This document shows positions 43,545 to 54,499 of a stretch of DNA of 64,000 nucleotides, in pieces; the first letter of the stretch is position 1; every line of letters begins with the position of its first letter. The notes under the pieces are model-generated. The model saw only the letters and a program-made list of their open reading frames with translations. It searched no databases and was not told the origin of the DNA. The DNA is from Ignatzschineria sp. RMDPL8A (GTDB lineage: Bacteria; Pseudomonadota; Gammaproteobacteria; Cardiobacteriales; Wohlfahrtiimonadaceae): positions 1,178,001 to 1,242,000 of the forward strand of contig NZ_JAPPWA010000002.1 of assembly GCF_029815055.1 (NCBI RefSeq), read 5' to 3'. The translations under genes were made by a program, and so were the position numbers.

Positions 43545-44954
43545 ATGACGCATAGTACGCCTCCCACAACGCTCGTCTGGTTTCGCCGAGATCTTCGGGT
43601 GTTTGATCATCGTGCGCTTCAATATGCCGTTCAGCAAAAAAGACCGATGGTTGCGGTGTTTATCTTTGATCGTGAGATTTTAGATCCGCTTCCAAATGAA
43701 GATCGAAGGCTCTCTTTTATCCATGAGACGGTTGCAGAATTAAAAGCATCACTTGCTGAAAAAAGCGTTCCTCTCTATGTTTTGAAGGGCCTACCAAAAA
43801 ACATCATTCCGGAATTGGCAGGAAAAACAGGGGCGGTAGAGGTGGTATCGGCTGAGGATTATGAGCCGAGTGCCATTATGCGGGATACTGAGGTTGCTCA
43901 CTGTTTAGAGGCACTTGGAATCGCGTTTACTCAGGTAAAAGATCAGGTGATTTTTGCAAAAAATGAGGTGATGACGCAAAAAGAGACGCCATTTCATGTT
44001 TTCACCCCCTATTATCGCCGTTGGATGGCTAAACTGCATGCGGGTGCGATCGATTGTCAACAGGATAATTGGGCGCAATTGGCAGATAACCAAAAAGCGC
44101 TTCCTACAGCGCTTCAATCACCTCCTGAAATGCCAACGCTTGAGGCATTAGGATTTACGCCGCAAACGCTACTACTTAGCGGGGGCGAAACAAGTGCGCA
44201 AGTCGTATTGGCAGATTTTTTAACGCGGATCGATCGCTATCATCTGGCGCGAGATTTTCCCTCTAAAAAGGGCGTTTCGTACCTGTCGGTGCATTTACGG
44301 TTTGGAACATTGTCGATTCGGCATCTAGTGACCCTTGCGTTAGAGGCGGATAGTGAAGGCGCGCAAATTTGGCTGAAAGAGCTCGTTTGGCGCGAATTTT
44401 ACCAGCAGTTTTTAACCCATTATCCCAATGTGGTGCGAGAGAGTTTTAAAGAAGAATATCGCGATCTTAAGTGGGAGAATAATGAGGCGTGGTTTGAGCG
44501 CTGGAAAATGGGACAGACCGGTTATCCGCTCATTGATGCAGCGATGCGACAACTCCTTCATAGTGGCTATATGCACAATCGTTTACGCATGATTGTTGCG
44601 AGTTTTTTAGTGAAAGATCTCTTAATCGATTGGCGCTGGGGCGAGGCGTGGTTTGCTAAAATGCTGCTCGATTTTGATCTTGCGGCCAATAATGGCGGCT
44701 GGCAGTGGGCGGCAAGTACCGGCTGTGATGCGCAACCGTACTTCCGTATTTTTAATCCCATTACCCAGTCAGAAAAATTTGATCCAAGCGGTGATTTTAT
44801 TCGCCGATATGTCCCAGAAATTGCCCATCTTGATAATAAATCCATCCACGCCCCGTGGCTCAGTAAAACCCACAAAAAGCCGCTCAATTATCCAGATCCA
44901 ATCGTTGATCATAAAACGCAACGGTTAAAAGCGTTGGAGCTGTTTAAGGTGTAG
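43545..44954 (+). CDS. phrB: Deoxyribodipyrimidine photolyase
   Basis: A 469-aa light-driven enzyme that repairs cyclobutane pyrimidine dimers. The N-terminal antenna domain opens with TTLVWFRRDLRVFDHRAL, and the FAD-binding helical domain carries WGEAWFAKMLLDFDLAANNGGWQW and the CPD-class stretch QPYFRIFNPITQSEKFDPSGDFIRRYVPEI. Start at 43545 is 1 bp after the FUSC stop, so it is cotranscribed with the efflux operon. Its last bases overlap the convergent WYL gene by 11 bp. Confidence 0.94.
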   Translation: MTHSTPPTTLVWFRRDLRVFDHRALQYAVQQKRPMVAVFIFDREILDPLPNEDRRLSFIHETVAELKASLAEKSVPLYVLKGLPKNIIPELAGKTGAVEVVSAEDYEPSAIMRDTEVAHCLEALGIAFTQVKDQVIFAKNEVMTQKETPFHVFTPYYRRWMAKLHAGAIDCQQDNWAQLADNQKALPTALQSPPEMPTLEALGFTPQTLLLSGGETSAQVVLADFLTRIDRYHLARDFPSKKGVSYLSVHLRFGTLSIRHLVTLALEADSEGAQIWLKELVWREFYQQFLTHYPNVVRESFKEEYRDLKWENNEAWFERWKMGQTGYPLIDAAMRQLLHSGYMHNRLRMIVASFLVKDLLIDWRWGEAWFAKMLLDFDLAANNGGWQWAASTGCDAQPYFRIFNPITQSEKFDPSGDFIRRYVPEIAHLDNKSIHAPWLSKTHKKPLNYPDPIVDHKTQRLKALELFKV

Positions 44955-45867
44955 GGTTTGTCGAGGGTATGCTTTGAAATCCCGGAGCCATAGGATTTAA
45001 ATGACTCAGAATATCGTGTCGATTTTCTAGCCAGAGGTGATAACTTTGGGGATTGAGCATTCCAGATTCGGAGCAATCCACATTCCAGACCCGTAAAAAG
45101 TAGTTAGCGGTTGATTTTTTAACACTGATTTTTCGTTTGCCACGAACCATTTGATATTCATACTCGATTACAGCCGCTTGATTTGGATTTAATTTTGGGT
45201 GAGGCATTAATAAGAGTTCAATTTCTTCATTCCAAAAAATGTCGTTGGTTGGTGATTCATGAGGTTGAACACTTTCATTTAAGCATTCAGCATTCATAAT
45301 TCTCGCTGGAGACATATCGATAAACTTGCTGTAATTTCGATCAAATAGACGGATATAGAGTCGTAAACCATCATTAAAAAGTGCGTGCGGTGCAACGATA
45401 CGTTCTTTAGACATGCCACTTTTAAGCGATAAATAAGTTATTTTCACACACTTTTTATGGATTATCCCATGAATGATGGGAGCTAATGCGGCCTGCTCAG
45501 GGAGATTGATCTTTGGCAGTCCATATACGAGCAATTGATTAAGCTCGGGCACACTTTCCAGTTGTAGCCAATAGAGCGCTTCTTCTTCAGAGATAGTAAA
45601 GAGCGGTTTAAAGGCGTGAGTGATTTCGTTGGCTTTCGTCTCTTTATTAAATTGCGCATTTTTTTGATCGCTTAGATCAATATATTCCTTAATTGCTCTA
45701 GTGGCTGAGGCTTCACTTAAATTGAATTTTTCAATAAGATCGGCACGCGTTACGAATCCCTTATAGATTAAGCAAAATTCAATATATCGTAATCGATTTG
45801 AGAGGTTTTGAAAGAGGGAAATGGTCTGATCCATAGCAAGATGAAAGCTCGTTAATGAGTAATTCAT
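44944..45867 (-). CDS. WYL-domain transcriptional regulator
   Basis: A 307-aa regulator with an N-terminal HTH (IEKFNLSEASATRAIKEYI-like helix pair around residues 45-65) and a WYL domain near residue 130-200 (KITYLSLKSGMSKERIVAPHALFNDGLRLYIRLFDR). WYL proteins sense nucleic-acid-related ligands and often control defence islands. It is divergent from the helicase-nuclease gene with ~170 bp between, so it probably controls that cassette. An in-frame ATG 11 codons further in is possible. Confidence 0.85.
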   Translation of the reverse strand: MNYSLTSFHLAMDQTISLFQNLSNRLRYIEFCLIYKGFVTRADLIEKFNLSEASATRAIKEYIDLSDQKNAQFNKETKANEITHAFKPLFTISEEEALYWLQLESVPELNQLLVYGLPKINLPEQAALAPIIHGIIHKKCVKITYLSLKSGMSKERIVAPHALFNDGLRLYIRLFDRNYSKFIDMSPARIMNAECLNESVQPHESPTNDIFWNEEIELLLMPHPKLNPNQAAVIEYEYQMVRGKRKISVKKSTANYFLRVWNVDCSESGMLNPQSYHLWLENRHDILSHLNPMAPGFQSIPSTNPTP

Positions 45868-46040
45868 TCATCATATCAAAAAGCCCTTAAGAAGCGTATT
45901 AAAACGATATAAAGAGGTATTGAATCCTTTAGTCAAATCAAAATGACTTGATTATTAAGTTTATTATGATACTGTTTTGTTATATTGTTGTTTTTTATTG
46001 TTGCTCAGCGAGTTTAAATATAAATTTAGGGAGAAGGTGT

Positions 46041-49000
46041 ATGAGTAAGTCAGTTCGGGGGCGCACATTAGAGGGGTTATTTCCAGGGGGTGTTCCCAAA
46101 ATCGATTTTGCTAATCCGATTTACGATTTGATTGAGCGTAAGTTTTATAAATCTTCTCATGAATTTAAATCAGGTCAGTTTTTGGCGTTGCCATTTCCGA
46201 CGGGGATTGGGAAAACGTATAATACGCTGTCATTTGCGCTACAATTTTTACTTGATGAGATTGAGCGAGAGTTAAATTCAGAGGGTGAGTATACGCCTCG
46301 TTACTGCTACTACATCACCAATTCGGTGGATAATGTTCATAATGCTTATTTGGATTTGCTAGATCGAATTGACGAGATTAATTCATTCTCGAGTGCTCAA
46401 AAAAATCTTCTGAAAGAGTCGATTTTATATGCACCTAACAATACGACGACGCTCTACACTATGTTTGATGAGTATAGTGATGTGCTTGAGCGGATTTATG
46501 AGGTATTTGAAGTAGATAAAACAAAGGAGCTTTATAATGGACTTAATCAGGTGCGATCGCAGTACTATGCGGCTAATTCAATTAAGGGGAATCAAAGCGA
46601 TATAAAAATTTTCCAAGATCAGCTAGCAGAGAGAGCGTCACAGGCTTACTCAAGGCTGGTGTTGCACCTTCAAAAGAAACTAAAAAAGGATCAAACAAAT
46701 CAGTTAAAAGGGCAGGTTCGATTATTAAAAAACCTAATCCCAGGAAGTCTATTAGAACCCGAGATTGGACGTGTTCGTATCGTGTTTATGACTACGAAAA
46801 AATTTATGTTTGGGCTCCATCAGACAACGAAAAAGTTTTATCCCTCAGCCAATTTATCCGAGAATTATCTCATTATTGATGAGATTGATCGTCAGCAAGC
46901 TGAAATTTTAGATCATTTAACTAGAGCCAATGAGATCGATATTCTATCAATTATACGCTCAATATATGCTCATTCAAAAACTGCCAAGCTTCCTCAGAAG
47001 CCTAAGTATGATGGGATTAATGTGCTTCTTGAAGCATATTTTGAAAAGGTGAGAGAGTTTTATGAATCGCATCATTTAGAGTGCAGTTTTCTACTGCATA
47101 AAGGATTAGAGAACTCGAAGAAACAGGTATTGCTCTTTAGTGACAAGCTAGCAACCCATATCACAAGCTTTGAGAAAAAACTGGTCTTTCAAACCAATCA
47201 GAAATATGATTTTCATGAAATTGGTATCAAAGGTGAGATTGGGGCGCATGAGGTGGATTTTCCTAAGTTTATTGGCGCCATGGAAAAACTTGCCAACCGT
47301 GATTTTTTCTATTTGATGCAGAATGTGGTTGAGCAGTACCAAAAAAATATGGCAAGTTTAGAGCAGAAGCGAAAGTCAAAAAATGGCCTCAATAAGCATG
47401 AGCCTGAAGATGCACCTGATGCGATTATAGCAACGGTTTTAGAGCATCTTCATCTATTTCATTTAGTCGACCACATGAAAGCACTCTTACTTCACCACAC
47501 TGGACGAAAAAAAGAGAAAGAGTTTAATCTTGGTGATTACCATATTCGAGGATTAAATTTAATCGAAGTGGATCGTCATGAAAATGTGATCGATTCAGTA
47601 CTCTTTAGACAGCATGGATTTGCTCGAACTCCGACAGGTATGCTCGGTGATTGGGTCTTAGCAGGGGGCAATATTTTGGGAGTGAGTGCTACCGCTGAAT
47701 GTGAAAGTGTCATCCATAACTTTGATATGAAGCATCTTGCTCATCGGCTCGGGAGTCGATGGATCGAGTTAACGTCTGATGATCGTAAAATTGTCCAAGA
47801 TTATTACAATTTGGAACGTAATTATCATCATGCGAAGATTAATTTGGATGCGCGTGAAGTGGTCACTGATGTTAATCATATTAAGGGGCTCATTGCTCGT
47901 TGGAGAGGCAAGCCTATAGCGCATCAGGAAGTGTTTTATCGAGCATTTTTTAAGCCTGAAAAAGTTCATCAATATGATCATTCTCTACGAGAATTAAGTA
48001 AGATTTGCATCGCAATTGAGGCATTCCTGGATGCTCCTAATAATCGCTATATGATGCTGATGTTAAATGCTGGAATCGTTAAGTTGGCATTTAAGGATAA
48101 GGAATATACAAATAAAAAAGAGGCGTGCCTAGCAAGCTTTTTAGAGTGGTATGTGGCGTACTTATCTGCGAAAAAAGAGATTGATACGAAATTGGTGTTG
48201 GGTGTTAATGCCGCTTATTTAAAGCAAGGAAAGTTTGAAACCGACGTGATTGCTCATCTAGAGAATCATTCGGGAAAGGTTATTGTATTTACTACGTATG
48301 CGACGATGTCTTCAGGGAAAAACCCTAAGTATAAATTTAATCATATCCATGAAAATAACACGTTGCATAATGTTGGAAAGCGAGAAGATCTCTATACCGA
48401 TATTGATGCTATTTACCTACAAAAGCCAACTCATTTGATTTCCATTGATGATCGAGCAAATCGTATTAGTAACCAATTGAGGTTGATGCATTATGGGCTC
48501 TCTCTTCAAGAGGGGCGATTTTTAAGTCCAAATGTGGCAGCTAGTTGGTGTAATACTGTTTTAACGGCAAACAATATGGATAATGCCTGTGGAGAGGCTA
48601 AAAAGAGGTGGTATAACACAAATATTGGATCGAACTGCTCGGAGGACGCATTGTTTTCGGTGTATCGAATGGTTGAGCAAGCCGTTGGGCGCACGGCGAG
48701 AACATCGATTAAGCGAGATACCATTTTACTATTGTTGGATGAAGATTTATCCCCGATTCTTGCGCAAGATAATCGGCAGTCAGCGATTTTAACGCATGAA
48801 TATGTTGCGTTAAGGAAATTAGCACAAGAGCAGAGTTTTCAAGCGCCATCATTGATCACTCGAGAGGAGCAGAGCCAGCATAACTTAGCACTTCTTCATA
48901 CTAGACGAGGATATCAATATATTAACCAACGATTAAGAGGGCTTGAGCATCAGCCTCAAGAAAAAGACGTGGCGTTATGGGAAGCACTTCGTTATGCCGT

Positions 49001-49730
49001 ATTAAGAATACCTGCATCAGTTTCTAAGCCGATCGAAAAAGACTTTTATCTTCATTCTAATATAGCGGATCAATATGAGTATTCAGCGCCTAAAAATGAG
49101 AATGAAATTCACAAATATACATTTTTTAAATACATTAATCCGGGAGATGGCAACATAAAGCGAACAGTGAGTGAGGCGGCCTCCAAGCTCCCCATTTTTA
49201 TGAAAAACCCAATCGTTAAAGACCATTTTGAAACGCAAGGATTTGCGACTGCGTGGGAAGCGGGCGCGCGTTATCTACTAACACCCCCGATGTTTATTAA
49301 TATCTATTTAGGTGCCTTAGGGGAAGAGGTCGGTCGTGCGATTTTACAGGCACAAGGTTGCATGATTTCTGCATTGCCTAATGAGCATTACGAGCGTTTT
49401 GACGGACTTCTCACATTTCAAGACCAGACGGTTTTAATTGATTTTAAACATTGGAATTTACAGGCATGGCGTATGCGAGATGAGGCTGATCGAATGCTTG
49501 AGATAGAGAAAATGGCCAAGAAGTTAAGAGCGCTACCTTATCAGAAATTGATTGTATGCAATATTCATTCTGAAGAGGCTGAAGAGGTACGATATTACGA
49601 TCAGACATTTAAACCGGCTTTGCCAAATGACAGTCAGATCATAGAAATTCCAGCTTTGATTGAAGGAGAGAATGGGGAAATCGCATCCGATAATATTCGC
49701 GCACTATTAGTGTGGCTTCAAAATAAATAA
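46041..49730 (+). CDS. SF2/DinG-like helicase fused to a PD-(D/E)xK nuclease
   Basis: A 1229-aa protein. Helicase motifs: Walker A PTGIGKT (53-59), DEID box (280-283) and motif VI QAVGRTAR (880-887); the very long spacing with inserted helices is unlike common SF2 enzymes. The C-terminus (~1090-1229) has a restriction-endonuclease-like core: E1095/E1096 in GEEVGRA, D1121 in RFDGLL and D1134-x-K1136 in LIDFKHW. The start at ATG 46041 follows GAGAAGG; the upstream open frame is hydrophobic and lacks a ribosome site. It is paired with the 661-aa gene 19 bp downstream and divergent from a WYL regulator. A defence role is inferred. Confidence 0.78.
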   Translation: MSKSVRGRTLEGLFPGGVPKIDFANPIYDLIERKFYKSSHEFKSGQFLALPFPTGIGKTYNTLSFALQFLLDEIERELNSEGEYTPRYCYYITNSVDNVHNAYLDLLDRIDEINSFSSAQKNLLKESILYAPNNTTTLYTMFDEYSDVLERIYEVFEVDKTKELYNGLNQVRSQYYAANSIKGNQSDIKIFQDQLAERASQAYSRLVLHLQKKLKKDQTNQLKGQVRLLKNLIPGSLLEPEIGRVRIVFMTTKKFMFGLHQTTKKFYPSANLSENYLIIDEIDRQQAEILDHLTRANEIDILSIIRSIYAHSKTAKLPQKPKYDGINVLLEAYFEKVREFYESHHLECSFLLHKGLENSKKQVLLFSDKLATHITSFEKKLVFQTNQKYDFHEIGIKGEIGAHEVDFPKFIGAMEKLANRDFFYLMQNVVEQYQKNMASLEQKRKSKNGLNKHEPEDAPDAIIATVLEHLHLFHLVDHMKALLLHHTGRKKEKEFNLGDYHIRGLNLIEVDRHENVIDSVLFRQHGFARTPTGMLGDWVLAGGNILGVSATAECESVIHNFDMKHLAHRLGSRWIELTSDDRKIVQDYYNLERNYHHAKINLDAREVVTDVNHIKGLIARWRGKPIAHQEVFYRAFFKPEKVHQYDHSLRELSKICIAIEAFLDAPNNRYMMLMLNAGIVKLAFKDKEYTNKKEACLASFLEWYVAYLSAKKEIDTKLVLGVNAAYLKQGKFETDVIAHLENHSGKVIVFTTYATMSSGKNPKYKFNHIHENNTLHNVGKREDLYTDIDAIYLQKPTHLISIDDRANRISNQLRLMHYGLSLQEGRFLSPNVAASWCNTVLTANNMDNACGEAKKRWYNTNIGSNCSEDALFSVYRMVEQAVGRTARTSIKRDTILLLLDEDLSPILAQDNRQSAILTHEYVALRKLAQEQSFQAPSLITREEQSQHNLALLHTRRGYQYINQRLRGLEHQPQEKDVALWEALRYAVLRIPASVSKPIEKDFYLHSNIADQYEYSAPKNENEIHKYTFFKYINPGDGNIKRTVSEAASKLPIFMKNPIVKDHFETQGFATAWEAGARYLLTPPMFINIYLGALGEEVGRAILQAQGCMISALPNEHYERFDGLLTFQDQTVLIDFKHWNLQAWRMRDEADRMLEIEKMAKKLRALPYQKLIVCNIHSEEAEEVRYYDQTFKPALPNDSQIIEIPALIEGENGEIASDNIRALLVWLQNK

Positions 49731-49749
49731 CCTTAAAAGGAGAGAGGAA

Positions 49750-51735
49750 ATGGATGTTCAAATAAATCGAATGGCAGTTACATTTTCGTATGAAAGAATT
49801 TGTCAAGATTTTGATGTGTTGCTAATCCGCTATGATAATCCTGAATATGGGGCTTTTGGACGGGTGATTAATGCAATTTATGCGGAAATAAAACCCTTGT
49901 CGTTGTCTAAAGAGGCGGGCTATGCGTATTATGTTTTATTACCTAAAGGGCAGGGGCGAGCGGCTAGATTAGAGGATGATCATTTTGTTATTAGAGAGCA
50001 AGACCCGCGCAACATAAAGCCTCTGCATTTAGCGCGATTACTGATTGGTGCATTGCCTGTATTATCCGACTCCGAGGAACGGTTTTGCGAAAAACTCGGG
50101 CTTTACTATCTTGTTGAGTGTGAAGAAGATCGTGGTGTTCCGATTATTCGAACATTCCAAATTGTTTTGGAAGAAGATCAACAAGGAGCGGAGACGATTG
50201 TTGTAAATTTAACAGGAACAACATTTATACCTCTTGCCTATTACCAAAACAGAGATGGATCTTTGCCACCCAAAGTAGCGCGGTTACCGCGATTTCATTT
50301 TGATGAATTTTCTCAAGAGATGAAGAAAGATCTGAAAGGGGATTTTATTTGTCGAGGGCATAAAACTAAGCGAATGAAGAGTCAAGTAGTCTCTTTAGAC
50401 CGAAGCCGTCCACATCTTTTTTGGCAAAGTAAGTTAGGTGTTTTGAAGCTATTTTTAGATGATGTGAAACGCTATCTAGGGAGTTATATAACCTATCAAC
50501 TTGAAACGATCGAGAGTGATTATCGGGTCTATTTCAGCTCAAAAAAGATCAATGATCTTTATAAGAAAATTGATTCTGTCATACGTATGCGACCATTTAA
50601 TATTGTGAATTTATCTGACGTTGATCCGAGTAAATTAATTGAATTTGTTAAAAAAGATCAGCTCAATTATGCCATAAGTACAGAGCTAGATCCCAAGGCC
50701 TTTAACTTAGTGATCCATCATTCACCCCAATATTACGCCGATCGTTATAGGAAGGACCCATATCAGGATCTACATAGAGAAAACGTTGTTGTTCAGTCGA
50801 TTATGGTTGAAAATATTGAGTCGACTGAGGCTTATGAGGCGTGTAAGAAAGAATTTGCGATTAAAGAAGAAATTTTACGGAATCAATTTTTATTAATATC
50901 GCTCGAAGGTACTTGGACTTTTATCAAGCGGGAGATGCGATCCATACTTGATGCAGACGGACAAGAAACGAAAGAGAAAGAAGCGTGGCATCATCTACTT
51001 GAGGTAAAAGGGGGTCAATTAAGTTATCGCTCTATTTCGCCAAATGATGATTCTTTTGATGAGGTTTTGATTACACTTCCGATCGTTGAGGACGATCAAT
51101 GGGAGTATGCAATATGCCATGAAAAGAGTGGCACGTCGTATATTATCCAAGAGACCAATTATGTAGAACTGCCTGATTTTGAGTCAATTAGTGAGGTGAT
51201 GAAAGAACTTGAAGTCGGCCATGATACGGGTATTTTAAGAGAGTGGATTGAAGAGTTCTTAGCGCTCTTGAAGTCCTCGAAATTAGATATTAAGGCAAGT
51301 GATGAGCAGATATCAGATTTAATAGCACGCCTTGAGAGGTTGTTGGACCTTTCAAAGAAACGATATTTTAAGGAAGATTGGGGAAGGGGTGCCTATGCGC
51401 TTTTTTATCGCGGGGTAGCGAAATCTTTTTTTGACTGGCTCTATGCAGAAAAAAGGATACTCTTAGGTGCTTCCTTACAAGGGAAACAGGGCTATATGAA
51501 TGCCGCGTTTGGTCTTTTTTATAATAATCGCGAAAAACTCTATTATGTGGGTGCTCAAAACATTAAGGAAAAAGTCTCGCAATTTTGTGTGCTTCGGCGG
51601 ATTATTACCGATGCTGAAAGTGTTCCGGATGCTCTTTTAGAGATGATGACGCACTTTCACATTCGGCATAAAAATTCAACCGTATATCCCTTTCCCTTTA
51701 AGCATTTGCGCGAATACCAGAAACTCAATGCTTAA
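49750..51735 (+). CDS. Unknown 661-aa partner of the helicase-nuclease
   Basis: A soluble 661-aa protein behind AAGGAGAGAGG. I do not recognise a family with confidence. Residues ~318-355 (LVIHHSPQYYADRYRKDPYQ, then VVVQSIMVEN) faintly recall the region before the catalytic core of pPIWI-RE/Argonaute-like proteins, which are described with DinG-type helicases and REase domains; the similarity is weak. The C-terminus (~545-661) is rich in aromatics (YALFYRGVAKSFFDWLY) and ends FPFKHLREYQKL. No TM helix. It follows the helicase-nuclease by 19 bp and must be cotranscribed. Confidence 0.65.
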   Translation: MDVQINRMAVTFSYERICQDFDVLLIRYDNPEYGAFGRVINAIYAEIKPLSLSKEAGYAYYVLLPKGQGRAARLEDDHFVIREQDPRNIKPLHLARLLIGALPVLSDSEERFCEKLGLYYLVECEEDRGVPIIRTFQIVLEEDQQGAETIVVNLTGTTFIPLAYYQNRDGSLPPKVARLPRFHFDEFSQEMKKDLKGDFICRGHKTKRMKSQVVSLDRSRPHLFWQSKLGVLKLFLDDVKRYLGSYITYQLETIESDYRVYFSSKKINDLYKKIDSVIRMRPFNIVNLSDVDPSKLIEFVKKDQLNYAISTELDPKAFNLVIHHSPQYYADRYRKDPYQDLHRENVVVQSIMVENIESTEAYEACKKEFAIKEEILRNQFLLISLEGTWTFIKREMRSILDADGQETKEKEAWHHLLEVKGGQLSYRSISPNDDSFDEVLITLPIVEDDQWEYAICHEKSGTSYIIQETNYVELPDFESISEVMKELEVGHDTGILREWIEEFLALLKSSKLDIKASDEQISDLIARLERLLDLSKKRYFKEDWGRGAYALFYRGVAKSFFDWLYAEKRILLGASLQGKQGYMNAAFGLFYNNREKLYYVGAQNIKEKVSQFCVLRRIITDAESVPDALLEMMTHFHIRHKNSTVYPFPFKHLREYQKLNA

Positions 51736-51961: not shown

Positions 51962-52161
51962 GGAGTCTCCTTATCATTAATAGGGGATCATTGTACTGAA
52001 AAAAGAGGGGATGGGGCAAATAAGAAACGATTCGTGGATAAATATAGATGGAGCTCAAGAAGCGGGCGATTCGGGCTTGAGTTTTCTTGCGATCTCCCAT
52101 ATAGATCAATGTGTCATACTTTATTTAACCCATTTTAAATCTGCGCCTGTAAGGGGGAGTG

Positions 52162-53307
52162 ATGCGTCTTTTGCCCATCTCGATATTATCGGGATTATCG
52201 ATACTTTTTTATCTCATCATTGCATCGGTGGATTATTTTTATACCGCGATGACAACCCATGTGAGTTTTACGCTCGCACTTTCGCAATATGGTCACGAGG
52301 TTTTGCTCTCAGGTGGGGTGATGGCGTTATTTTTGGCGATGGTGTTGTGGGTGATTGGTGTGCATGAGCGAGTTCAAATGTTGGATGCGCGCAGTATCGG
52401 CTATGCATTGGTGTTTTCGTTGCTCACTTACTTCGGGAACATACAATTAAACGCGCTTGAGGGGTGGGCGGTCTATCTTGTTTTAGGCATTGAATATATG
52501 GCCTATCCCCCGTATATTTTGGTGATGCTCTCGATGATCGCTGCGTTTTTGTGGGGGCTTATTATCTGGAAAGTCTTTCAATTTCTTTCGGCGACTTGGA
52601 TGCATATTTGGCGCGCTGAGAAAGAAGTTTTCACCCTTGAAAAGCGCCACTCAATCACTGCATTTTCACTAACGGCGCTGCTCTTTTTGGGCTTTTTTCG
52701 ATTGGAAGGGGCGGCGATTATCTCTGCGTTTTTCCATAGTCTAGCAAGCGAAGATCTTAAAAATGTACTCATCATTTCGCTTCTTGTTTGCGCGGGCGTC
52801 GGAGTCTTTCTCTATCTGCAATATCTCGCTTGGCGAACTGTCTTAACAGGAGTGCGCTATCAGAAAATTTCTATTCTGCGCATTTTTATTACGGCGATTA
52901 TTGCGGTGATCCTAACGCTCGTATTTGTCGTGGTGTCACATAAACTCATGGGCGCGGGCGAGGTTATCGTAACATCGCGTGATCTGCTTTCGATCGATCT
53001 TTTTTCTAGCATTATGATGAATTTTGTGGCATTTGGATTAATGCTCTCTTATTTTGAAACATTAAAAAAACATTTCGTGCCGAAAAATCCGTGTAGAACG
53101 GCCATTGTGCTCTTATTGGGATTAACGATCGGTTGTGGCGGCGCGCTCTTTTTGTTAACGGGCGACCTGAGACAGACCTATCTGATTAGCACCTATCTGC
53201 TGCTTGTGTTTGGGGCGTTGATGTTGCTGCAAATTGAGCTCGCTCGCACCATCACCCCGATTACCTATTTTACTACTGCACGTGAAACGACGCAGGCGAG
53301 ACGTTAA
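52162..53307 (+). CDS. Polytopic membrane protein of unknown function
   Basis: A 381-aa protein with about ten predicted hydrophobic helices spread over the whole length and no soluble domain. I do not recognise a family. AAGGGGGAG precedes the ATG at 52162 (GTG one codon earlier is possible). It is divergent from the 48-aa acidic peptide gene, and its end overlaps the convergent nuclease-like gene by 35 bp. Confidence 0.75.
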   Translation: MRLLPISILSGLSILFYLIIASVDYFYTAMTTHVSFTLALSQYGHEVLLSGGVMALFLAMVLWVIGVHERVQMLDARSIGYALVFSLLTYFGNIQLNALEGWAVYLVLGIEYMAYPPYILVMLSMIAAFLWGLIIWKVFQFLSATWMHIWRAEKEVFTLEKRHSITAFSLTALLFLGFFRLEGAAIISAFFHSLASEDLKNVLIISLLVCAGVGVFLYLQYLAWRTVLTGVRYQKISILRIFITAIIAVILTLVFVVVSHKLMGAGEVIVTSRDLLSIDLFSSIMMNFVAFGLMLSYFETLKKHFVPKNPCRTAIVLLLGLTIGCGGALFLLTGDLRQTYLISTYLLLVFGALMLLQIELARTITPITYFTTARETTQARR

Positions 53308-54499
53308 TGCGCGGAACGCCCTTATATTCCTCAATTTTACCGTAGGCGCACACCTCAAAATATTTTAGCTGATAGGGCGAAGCGTTTTCACGAGTGATGG
53401 TGGGAATATGCTCTTCCCAGATCACAAAAGTGGCCGCTTGATTGGGGTAATTTTCTTCCAAATTAAGATAGATGCCTTTTTTAAAGTCGCTCACTTGAAC
53501 CACTTTCCCGCAGACCTCTTTGGTTTGCCCGATATAGTGGCGCGCATTTTTAGCGCTGATTGAGGCACGTTTGATTGGCTGAATCGGGGCGGGGGCATTG
53601 ATACTTGTTTGTGTCGGTGTGCTCTCTTTTTCCATATTAGAGAGTTTAAAAAAGACAGCGCCGAGCGCGATCACAATGATCCCCGTTAAAATATACATGG
53701 TGCGGAGCATCAGCTGATTTTCCTTTTTTGTTTTTTTGAGATTAAGTTCGGTGTCGTCTTTCGCTTTTTGGAGCTGTTCGGTGCGATTTTGGGCAATTTT
53801 TTCAGCGGTCTGCTCAAGGGTGGCAAGATCGCGCTCATATTTCGCTTCAAGAGATTGTTTGGCGGTCTCCATCGTGTGGAGGCGCTGTTGCATCTCGTTA
53901 TAGGCATCGGGATTGATGGAATCTTGCGCCGATTTTGATTTCTCTTTTAAGGATTTTAGCTCGAAAGTAGCTTGGCGGAGGGATTGTTTGAGCCGATAAG
54001 TTTCGCTCTCAAGGGTGTCGTGTTGCTCTTTGAGCTGCTTGGCTTCGAGATGTTTTTGCGCTTGGAAGTAGAGCGTTTTATTGATGCGTTCAATGATCGC
54101 GCTTGAATTGCGAAACATCTGACTATTGGAAAAACGTAACAGTGGGCCAACCTGCTCTAAGAGATCATTTTGACGACTTAAAAAATCCGCCCATTGCGCT
54201 TGGAGCTCATTTTGACCGCGTCGAGCGCCATCGAGTTCAATGGCTAAAAAGTGCCCTTTGGTGCCATTTTGAATGACAAAATCAATGCGGCGATTGCGGT
54301 TTTGGCCATCAACAAAGGGGTATTGCGGGGTGACATCATCGGGGGAGACGCTGCTCAATTTTGAGAGCACGCGCACCACAAAATCGAATTCAAATCCGTC
54401 TGAAATTGCCTGCCGATGGCGCTGTACCCAGCCTTGCCATTTGGGATCTAAGCATTGAAATGAGTTGTTTTTCACTCTGCGTCCTTGCGTTACCGTCAA
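53273..54499 (-). CDS. Membrane-anchored DUF-type nuclease/coiled-coil/OB protein
   Basis: A 408-aa protein with an unusual domain order. Residues ~15-130: DUF2726-like PD-(D/E)xK domain (NRRIDFVIQ with Asp near 72, FLAIELDGARR with Glu near 88-90). Residues ~145-265: long coiled coil rich in Lys/Glu/Gln. Residues ~268-288: one TM helix (MYILTGIIVIALGAVFF). Residues ~320-408: OB-fold-like domain (YIGQTKEVCGKVVQVSDF, IYLNLEENYPNQAATFVIW). The topology would put the nuclease in the cytoplasm and the OB domain in the periplasm. Function unknown. Confidence 0.7.
   Translation of the reverse strand: MTVTQGRRVKNNSFQCLDPKWQGWVQRHRQAISDGFEFDFVVRVLSKLSSVSPDDVTPQYPFVDGQNRNRRIDFVIQNGTKGHFLAIELDGARRGQNELQAQWADFLSRQNDLLEQVGPLLRFSNSQMFRNSSAIIERINKTLYFQAQKHLEAKQLKEQHDTLESETYRLKQSLRQATFELKSLKEKSKSAQDSINPDAYNEMQQRLHTMETAKQSLEAKYERDLATLEQTAEKIAQNRTEQLQKAKDDTELNLKKTKKENQLMLRTMYILTGIIVIALGAVFFKLSNMEKESTPTQTSINAPAPIQPIKRASISAKNARHYIGQTKEVCGKVVQVSDFKKGIYLNLEENYPNQAATFVIWEEHIPTITRENASPYQLKYFEVCAYGKIEEYKGVPRINVSPASFHVQ

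What the first reader, a model, noticed from the sequence alone, without database searches (positions are those of the whole stretch)
45868..51735. WYL-controlled cassette: helicase fused to restriction-type nuclease plus unknown 661-aa protein
A divergent WYL regulator, a 1229-aa protein with PTGIGKT, DEID, QAVGRTAR and a C-terminal D-x12-D-x-K nuclease core, and a coupled 661-aa protein form a compact unit. The parts recall pPIWI-RE cassettes (PIWI-like protein, DinG helicase, REase) with the REase fused to the helicase, but the PIWI match of the third protein is weak, so it may be a new type.
Basis: partly seen in the sequence, partly recalled or inferred. Interest (0 to 1): 0.82.

Follow-up and report, generated by a model that had tools for sequence, protein, structure and literature searches.

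The report
A DdmDE plasmid-elimination defence operon
These genes encode a relative of DdmDE, a known two-protein bacterial defence from the cholera bacterium in which an Argonaute-like protein finds invading plasmids and a helicase-nuclease destroys them, next to a WYL-type switch gene that probably controls it; it is a good new member of a known kind, not a new kind of system.

Summary
PADLOC DdmD scores 2e-165 and DdmE 3e-38; solved V. cholerae DdmD and DdmE match at 1e-146 and 2e-37. The predicted nuclease domain folds like DdmD, and the DdmE model matches DdmE, then Argonautes. Helicase and PD-(D/E)XK residues are intact and invariant in nine homologues; DdmE lacks a conserved Asp-based slicer site. 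An upstream WYL gene was already noted for V. cholerae ddmDE (VC1772; PMC12409362). In a same-species metagenome genome ddmD is interrupted by an IS3-like element. Verdict: new member of a known kind.

The parts
44944..45867 (-). BrxR/CapW-type WYL-domain regulator gene, divergent from ddmD (307 aa)
   Evidence: Pfam WYL 8.6e-6; PDB 7qfz 4e-37, CapW and BrxR chains about 1e-22; 61% identical homologue at the same place in G011
45868..46040 (.). wyl-ddmD intergenic region (173 bp), expected to hold both promoters
   Evidence: sequence; one promoter-like match, not above chance
45936..45949 (.). candidate WYL operator AATCAAAATGACTT, core of an imperfect palindrome TAGTCAAATCA-aaa-TGACTTGATTA (45930-45954)
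   Evidence: only exact copy in the 2.18-Mb genome; same 14-mer inverted in the G011 wyl-ddmD spacer, 0/300 shuffles reach 14; the palindrome alone is not above chance
46041..49730 (+). ddmD: SF2-type helicase with C-terminal PD-(D/E)XK nuclease, 1229 aa (ORF open from TTG 45948)
   Evidence: PADLOC DdmD 2.2e-165; V. cholerae DdmD 1.4e-146; invariant K58, D280/E281/D283, R884/R887, E1095, D1134, K1136
49128..49727 (+). nuclease domain of DdmD
   Evidence: AlphaFold pLDDT 82.5; Foldseek 9bf1 7e-16, EcoO109I and McrBC next at weak scores
49750..51735 (+). ddmE: probably catalytically inactive Argonaute-like guide protein, 661 aa
   Evidence: PADLOC DdmE 3.1e-38; V. cholerae DdmE 1.7e-37; family profile hits V. 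cholerae DdmE 1e-130 and L. casei DdmE 6e-14; Foldseek DdmE then Argonautes

Best explanation
This is a DdmDE plasmid-elimination operon with a divergent BrxR/CapW-type WYL regulator. By homology to V. cholerae: DdmE, an inactive Argonaute, carries a short single-stranded DNA guide and pairs with plasmid DNA; it recruits DdmD, which leaves an autoinhibited dimer, loads on the displaced strand, translocates 5' to 3' with its helicase and cuts with its PD-(D/E)XK nuclease. Shown here: gene order, homology, intact active-site residues, nuclease fold, Argonaute-like fold of DdmE. Inferred: guide use, target, loss of plasmids. Inferred more weakly: the WYL protein represses its own and the ddmDE promoter from a shared site near 45930-45954 and lets go on a nucleic-acid signal such as ssDNA.
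For: PADLOC, PDB sequence matches over nearly the full length of both proteins, invariant motifs, nuclease alignment pairing E1095/D1134/K1136 with V. cholerae E1059/D1100/K1102, fold matches, ddmD followed by ddmE in the loci that are complete on that side. WYL; candidate site. Mechanism of DdmDE and the WYL gene VC1772 upstream of it: PMC12409362.
Against: No functional data. The DdmE model is of low global confidence (pTM 0.44). DdmE is only about 21-24% identical to the characterised protein and its near kin. No WYL gene adjoins 4 of the 12 ddmD loci seen, so it is not an obligatory part. No palindrome or promoter match above chance in the spacer.
Confidence: 0.95

Rival explanations
1. 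A pPIWI-RE cassette with the REase fused to the helicase.
For: Same general parts: Argonaute-like protein, helicase, PD-(D/E)XK nuclease.
Against: No pPIWI-RE Pfam family at E up to 10; nearly end-to-end matches to DdmD and DdmE.
Confidence: 0.01
2. An ApsAB-type system, the E. coli anti-plasmid relative of DdmDE with an ApsB Argonaute that keeps a MID motif.
For: ApsA and DdmD belong to one broad helicase-nuclease family (PMC11096173).
Against: The partner matches DdmE directly; ApsB is reported to have no sequence similarity to DdmE. ApsA/ApsB sequences were not aligned here.
Confidence: 0.03
3. DdmDE genes are there, but the WYL gene is an unrelated neighbour that does not regulate them.
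For: The nearest relatives of this WYL protein in other families have no ddmDE next to them; 4 of 12 ddmD loci lack it.
Against: The divergent WYL-ddmD arrangement recurs in distant genomes, and a WYL gene lies upstream in V. cholerae; 14-mer shared by the two family spacers.
Confidence: 0.2

Closest known systems
DdmDE of Vibrio cholerae VPI-2, with the WYL gene VC1772 upstream
   Same: Same two proteins, same helicase and nuclease motifs, DdmE without slicer site, a WYL-domain gene upstream
   Different: Vibrio-type homologues are about 29% (DdmD) and 24% (DdmE) identical; the WYL protein lies on a different branch from those at Vibrio-type ddmDE loci (weakly supported). VC1772 itself was not available for comparison
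DdmDE of Lactobacillus casei (PDB 9ix4, 9ixm, 9iw3)
   Same: Homologous DdmD and DdmE
   Different: Much more distant (DdmD 1e-13 single-sequence; DdmE only by profile, 6e-14)
ApsAB of E. coli ST38
   Same: Helicase-nuclease plus Argonaute-like protein, anti-plasmid (PMC11096173)
   Different: Partner is ApsB, reported not to resemble DdmE in sequence
BrxR / CapW WYL regulators of BREX and CBASS
   Same: The WYL protein is a full-length homologue (7qfz 4e-37)
   Different: Sits at ddmDE, which is not named among the BrxR-linked systems in section 22 of PMC9122601

Membership tests
DdmDE | DdmD: SF2 helicase motifs (Walker A, DExD, Q-x-x-GR-x-x-R) | tested here: met
   K58, D280/E281/D283, Q880, G883-R884, R887 invariant
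DdmDE | DdmD: C-terminal PD-(D/E)XK nuclease with catalytic residues | tested here: met
   E1095, D1134, K1136 invariant and aligned to V. cholerae E1059, D1100, K1102; fold match
DdmDE | DdmE: homologue of V. cholerae DdmE with Argonaute-like fold | tested here: met
   3.1e-38, 1.7e-37, Foldseek 2e-32 to 9bgk_E and Argonautes from 2e-9 (model of low global confidence)
DdmDE | DdmE lacks an active DEDX slicer site | tested here: met
   no invariant Asp in the C-terminal half of ten DdmE sequences
DdmDE | ddmD and ddmE adjacent in one operon | tested here: met
   19-nt gap in the window; adjacent in other loci that are complete on that side
DdmDE | DNA-guided plasmid elimination | not testable with these tools
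   needs a plasmid-stability assay
pPIWI-RE cassette | pPIWI-RE protein (Pfam pPIWI-RE modules) | tested here: not met
   no such match at E up to 10
pPIWI-RE cassette | separate DinG-type helicase and REase genes | tested here: not met
   one fused protein matching DdmD; typeIV_DinG only 0.0024 over 65 residues
ApsAB | ApsB-type Argonaute with MID motif | tested here: inconclusive
   protein matches DdmE; no ApsB sequence was available for direct comparison; Q349 and K372 are invariant but the first two MID positions are not evident
BrxR/CapW WYL regulators | full-length homology, from the N-terminal DNA-binding part through the WYL domain to the C-terminus | tested here: met
   residues 19-298 match 7qfz 11-293
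BrxR/CapW WYL regulators | binds an inverted repeat upstream of its own gene | tested here: inconclusive
   candidate site shared with G011, palindrome not above chance

The most novel reading that the evidence does not exclude
BrxR-type WYL repressors were recruited to ddmDE more than once, each with its own operator, so that anti-plasmid immunity is silenced until a nucleic-acid signal (perhaps ssDNA of an entering or replicating plasmid) is sensed; and the same regulator family controls both DdmDE and a Wadjet/Mks-type anti-plasmid SMC operon in sister genomes.
Probability: 0.3. Interest if true: 0.5.

Novelty: new member of a known kind. Interest (0 to 1): 0.22.

Why it matters
It extends DdmDE with its WYL gene to a small-genome gammaproteobacterial lineage outside Vibrio. 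It gives a comparative handle (a recurring gene arrangement and a candidate operator) on an openly stated question: what the WYL protein next to ddmDE does, said in PMC12409362 to be under study for VC1772.

Tried and rejected
pPIWI-RE: no match. DdmDE on phages: none for DdmD; on plasmids only two distant partial DdmD matches and no DdmE. One viral-contig hit, L058, carries a divergent WYL gene and ddmD, and ends at the end of ddmD. RNA families around the cassette: none. Promoter and terminator scans: at chance level. Single origin of ddm-linked WYL genes: two groups on the tree, but forced monophyly is only marginally rejected (AU p 0.042 with, 0.083 without the long-branch SMC-linked rows), so left open. 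Empty insertion site: the flanking gene 52159-53307 is absent outside the species, and the photolyases of relatives are only 40-44% identical, so no clean empty site could be shown. The main DdmDE structure papers were not in the library; the mechanism is cited from the review PMC12409362.

Full report
Observation. The window holds a divergent WYL-domain gene (44944-45867, -), a 1229-aa ORF (46041-49730, +; open from a TTG at 45948) and a 661-aa ORF (49750-51735, +) 19 nt downstream. The three genes have 38-39% GC against about 46% in the flanks, which fits horizontal acquisition (inference).

Identity. Pfam and NCBIfam give no usable name to the two large proteins. PADLOC names them DdmD (E 2.2e-165, residues 72-1259 of the long frame against 38-1189 of 1190) and DdmE (3.1e-38, 53-659 against 72-682 of 687). 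Against the PDB, the first matches solved V. cholerae DdmD at 1.4e-146 and L. casei DdmD at 1e-13; the second matches V. cholerae DdmE at 1.7e-37. Profiles built from homologues fetched here raise this to 1e-130 for V. cholerae DdmE, with L. casei DdmE at 6e-14, and to E=0 (1076 bits) for V. cholerae DdmD.

Active sites. In nine DdmD proteins the Walker A (G55, G57-K58-T59), D280-E281-x-D283, Q880, G883-R884, R887, and the nuclease residues E1095, D1134, K1136 are invariant; the last three align with V. cholerae E1059, D1100, K1102. A structure prediction of the last 200 residues (pLDDT 82.5) finds the DdmD structures first (7e-16) and the restriction-type nucleases EcoO109I and McrBC next, at weak scores. 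The DdmE model is of moderate local and low global confidence, yet its best matches are the DdmE structures followed by Argonautes and PIWI proteins. Ten DdmE sequences have no invariant Asp in the C-terminal half, as expected for an Argonaute without slicer activity. Q349 and K372 are invariant; their spacing resembles the Q and second K of the Argonaute MID pocket (inference, from my own knowledge of the family).

Mechanism. The review PMC12409362 describes V. cholerae DdmDE: DNA-guided DdmE targets plasmids and recruits DdmD, the DdmD dimer comes apart, DdmD loads on the non-target strand, translocates 5' to 3' and cuts. Conservation of all catalytic residues and of the gene pair supports the same mechanism here; it has not been shown for these proteins.

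Regulator. The WYL protein is a full-length BrxR/CapW-type homologue (7qfz 4e-37; CapW and BrxR chains about 1e-22). The V. cholerae review already notes a WYL gene (VC1772) upstream of ddmDE as a possible regulator under study, so the association is not new. Here, of 12 ddmD loci with some upstream sequence, 8 have a WYL gene divergent from ddmD (window, G011, G382, G370, G485, G513, viral contig L058, and a shortened one in G538) and 4 do not (G753, G815 with only 1.2 kb upstream, and two in Paraperlucidibaca). The nearest relatives of this WYL protein in other families (31-39% identical) are not next to ddmDE in the stretches read, while the WYL genes at ddmDE loci outside the family are only 23-27% identical. 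On the tree the ddm-linked WYL proteins form two groups, but a single group is only marginally rejected (p 0.042 and 0.083).

Candidate operator. The wyl-ddmD spacers of the window and of G011 (DdmD 46%, WYL 61% identical; spacers otherwise dissimilar) share the 14-mer AATCAAAATGACTT in opposite orientation; 0 of 300 dinucleotide shuffles gave 14. It occurs exactly once in the 2.18-Mb genome. In the window it is the centre of an imperfect palindrome with 9 of 11 arm matches, which alone is not above chance. Other ddmDE loci have a different shared element, CAGTRTTTACMTGT, in four spacers (G370, G513, G382, L058; not tested against shuffles). BrxR binds 11-bp inverted repeats upstream of its own gene (PMC9122601), so a shared operator for both divergent promoters is a reasonable inference, not a result.

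Host. The genome is 2.18 Mb in three contigs. The only named record matching it is a metagenome contig titled 'Lysobacteraceae bacterium isolate AS07pgkLD_132' (L010), so the genus is not settled here.

Verdict. The finding is sound as an observation and right in calling it a defence cassette, but it is a member of DdmDE, not a pPIWI-RE variant or a new type.

Noticed in passing
L039:6071-6183 and L056:1-140 (equivalent to window 49480): In a metagenome-assembled genome of the same species (G884) the ddmD gene is interrupted after the nuclease motif: the two contig ends carry matching terminal repeats (TGTTCTGGTC / GACCAGAACA) of what looks like an IS3-type element and a 3-bp duplication ATG.
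   Followed up: partly
L041:9389-16204, also L042 and L040: In sister genomes a related WYL gene is divergent from a four-gene operon with a JetD-like end, a DUF3584/JetC-like SMC protein and MksE: a Wadjet/Mks-type system.
   Followed up: partly
window 53273-54499 (-): 408-aa protein with a sub-threshold MTES_1575 restriction-type nuclease domain followed by a probable coiled coil and membrane helix (the last two read from the sequence).
   Followed up: no
L013:3703-6607: About 3 kb from the WYL end of the G011 ddmDE locus lies an AAA ATPase plus HNH pair matching candidate defence system PDC-M62A/B.
   Followed up: no
L014:13424-15987, L015:147-2000, L015:9981-12692, L012:7893-11423: Paraperlucidibaca carries two different ddmDE sets, without adjacent WYL gene, one next to transposase-like genes.
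   Followed up: no
L018:9012-16463: G007 encodes a 1516-aa helicase-like protein with very weak similarity to DdmD (E 2e-5) and a GPTGLGKT motif near its start, followed by a 927-aa protein; possibly another helicase-based defence pair.
   Followed up: no
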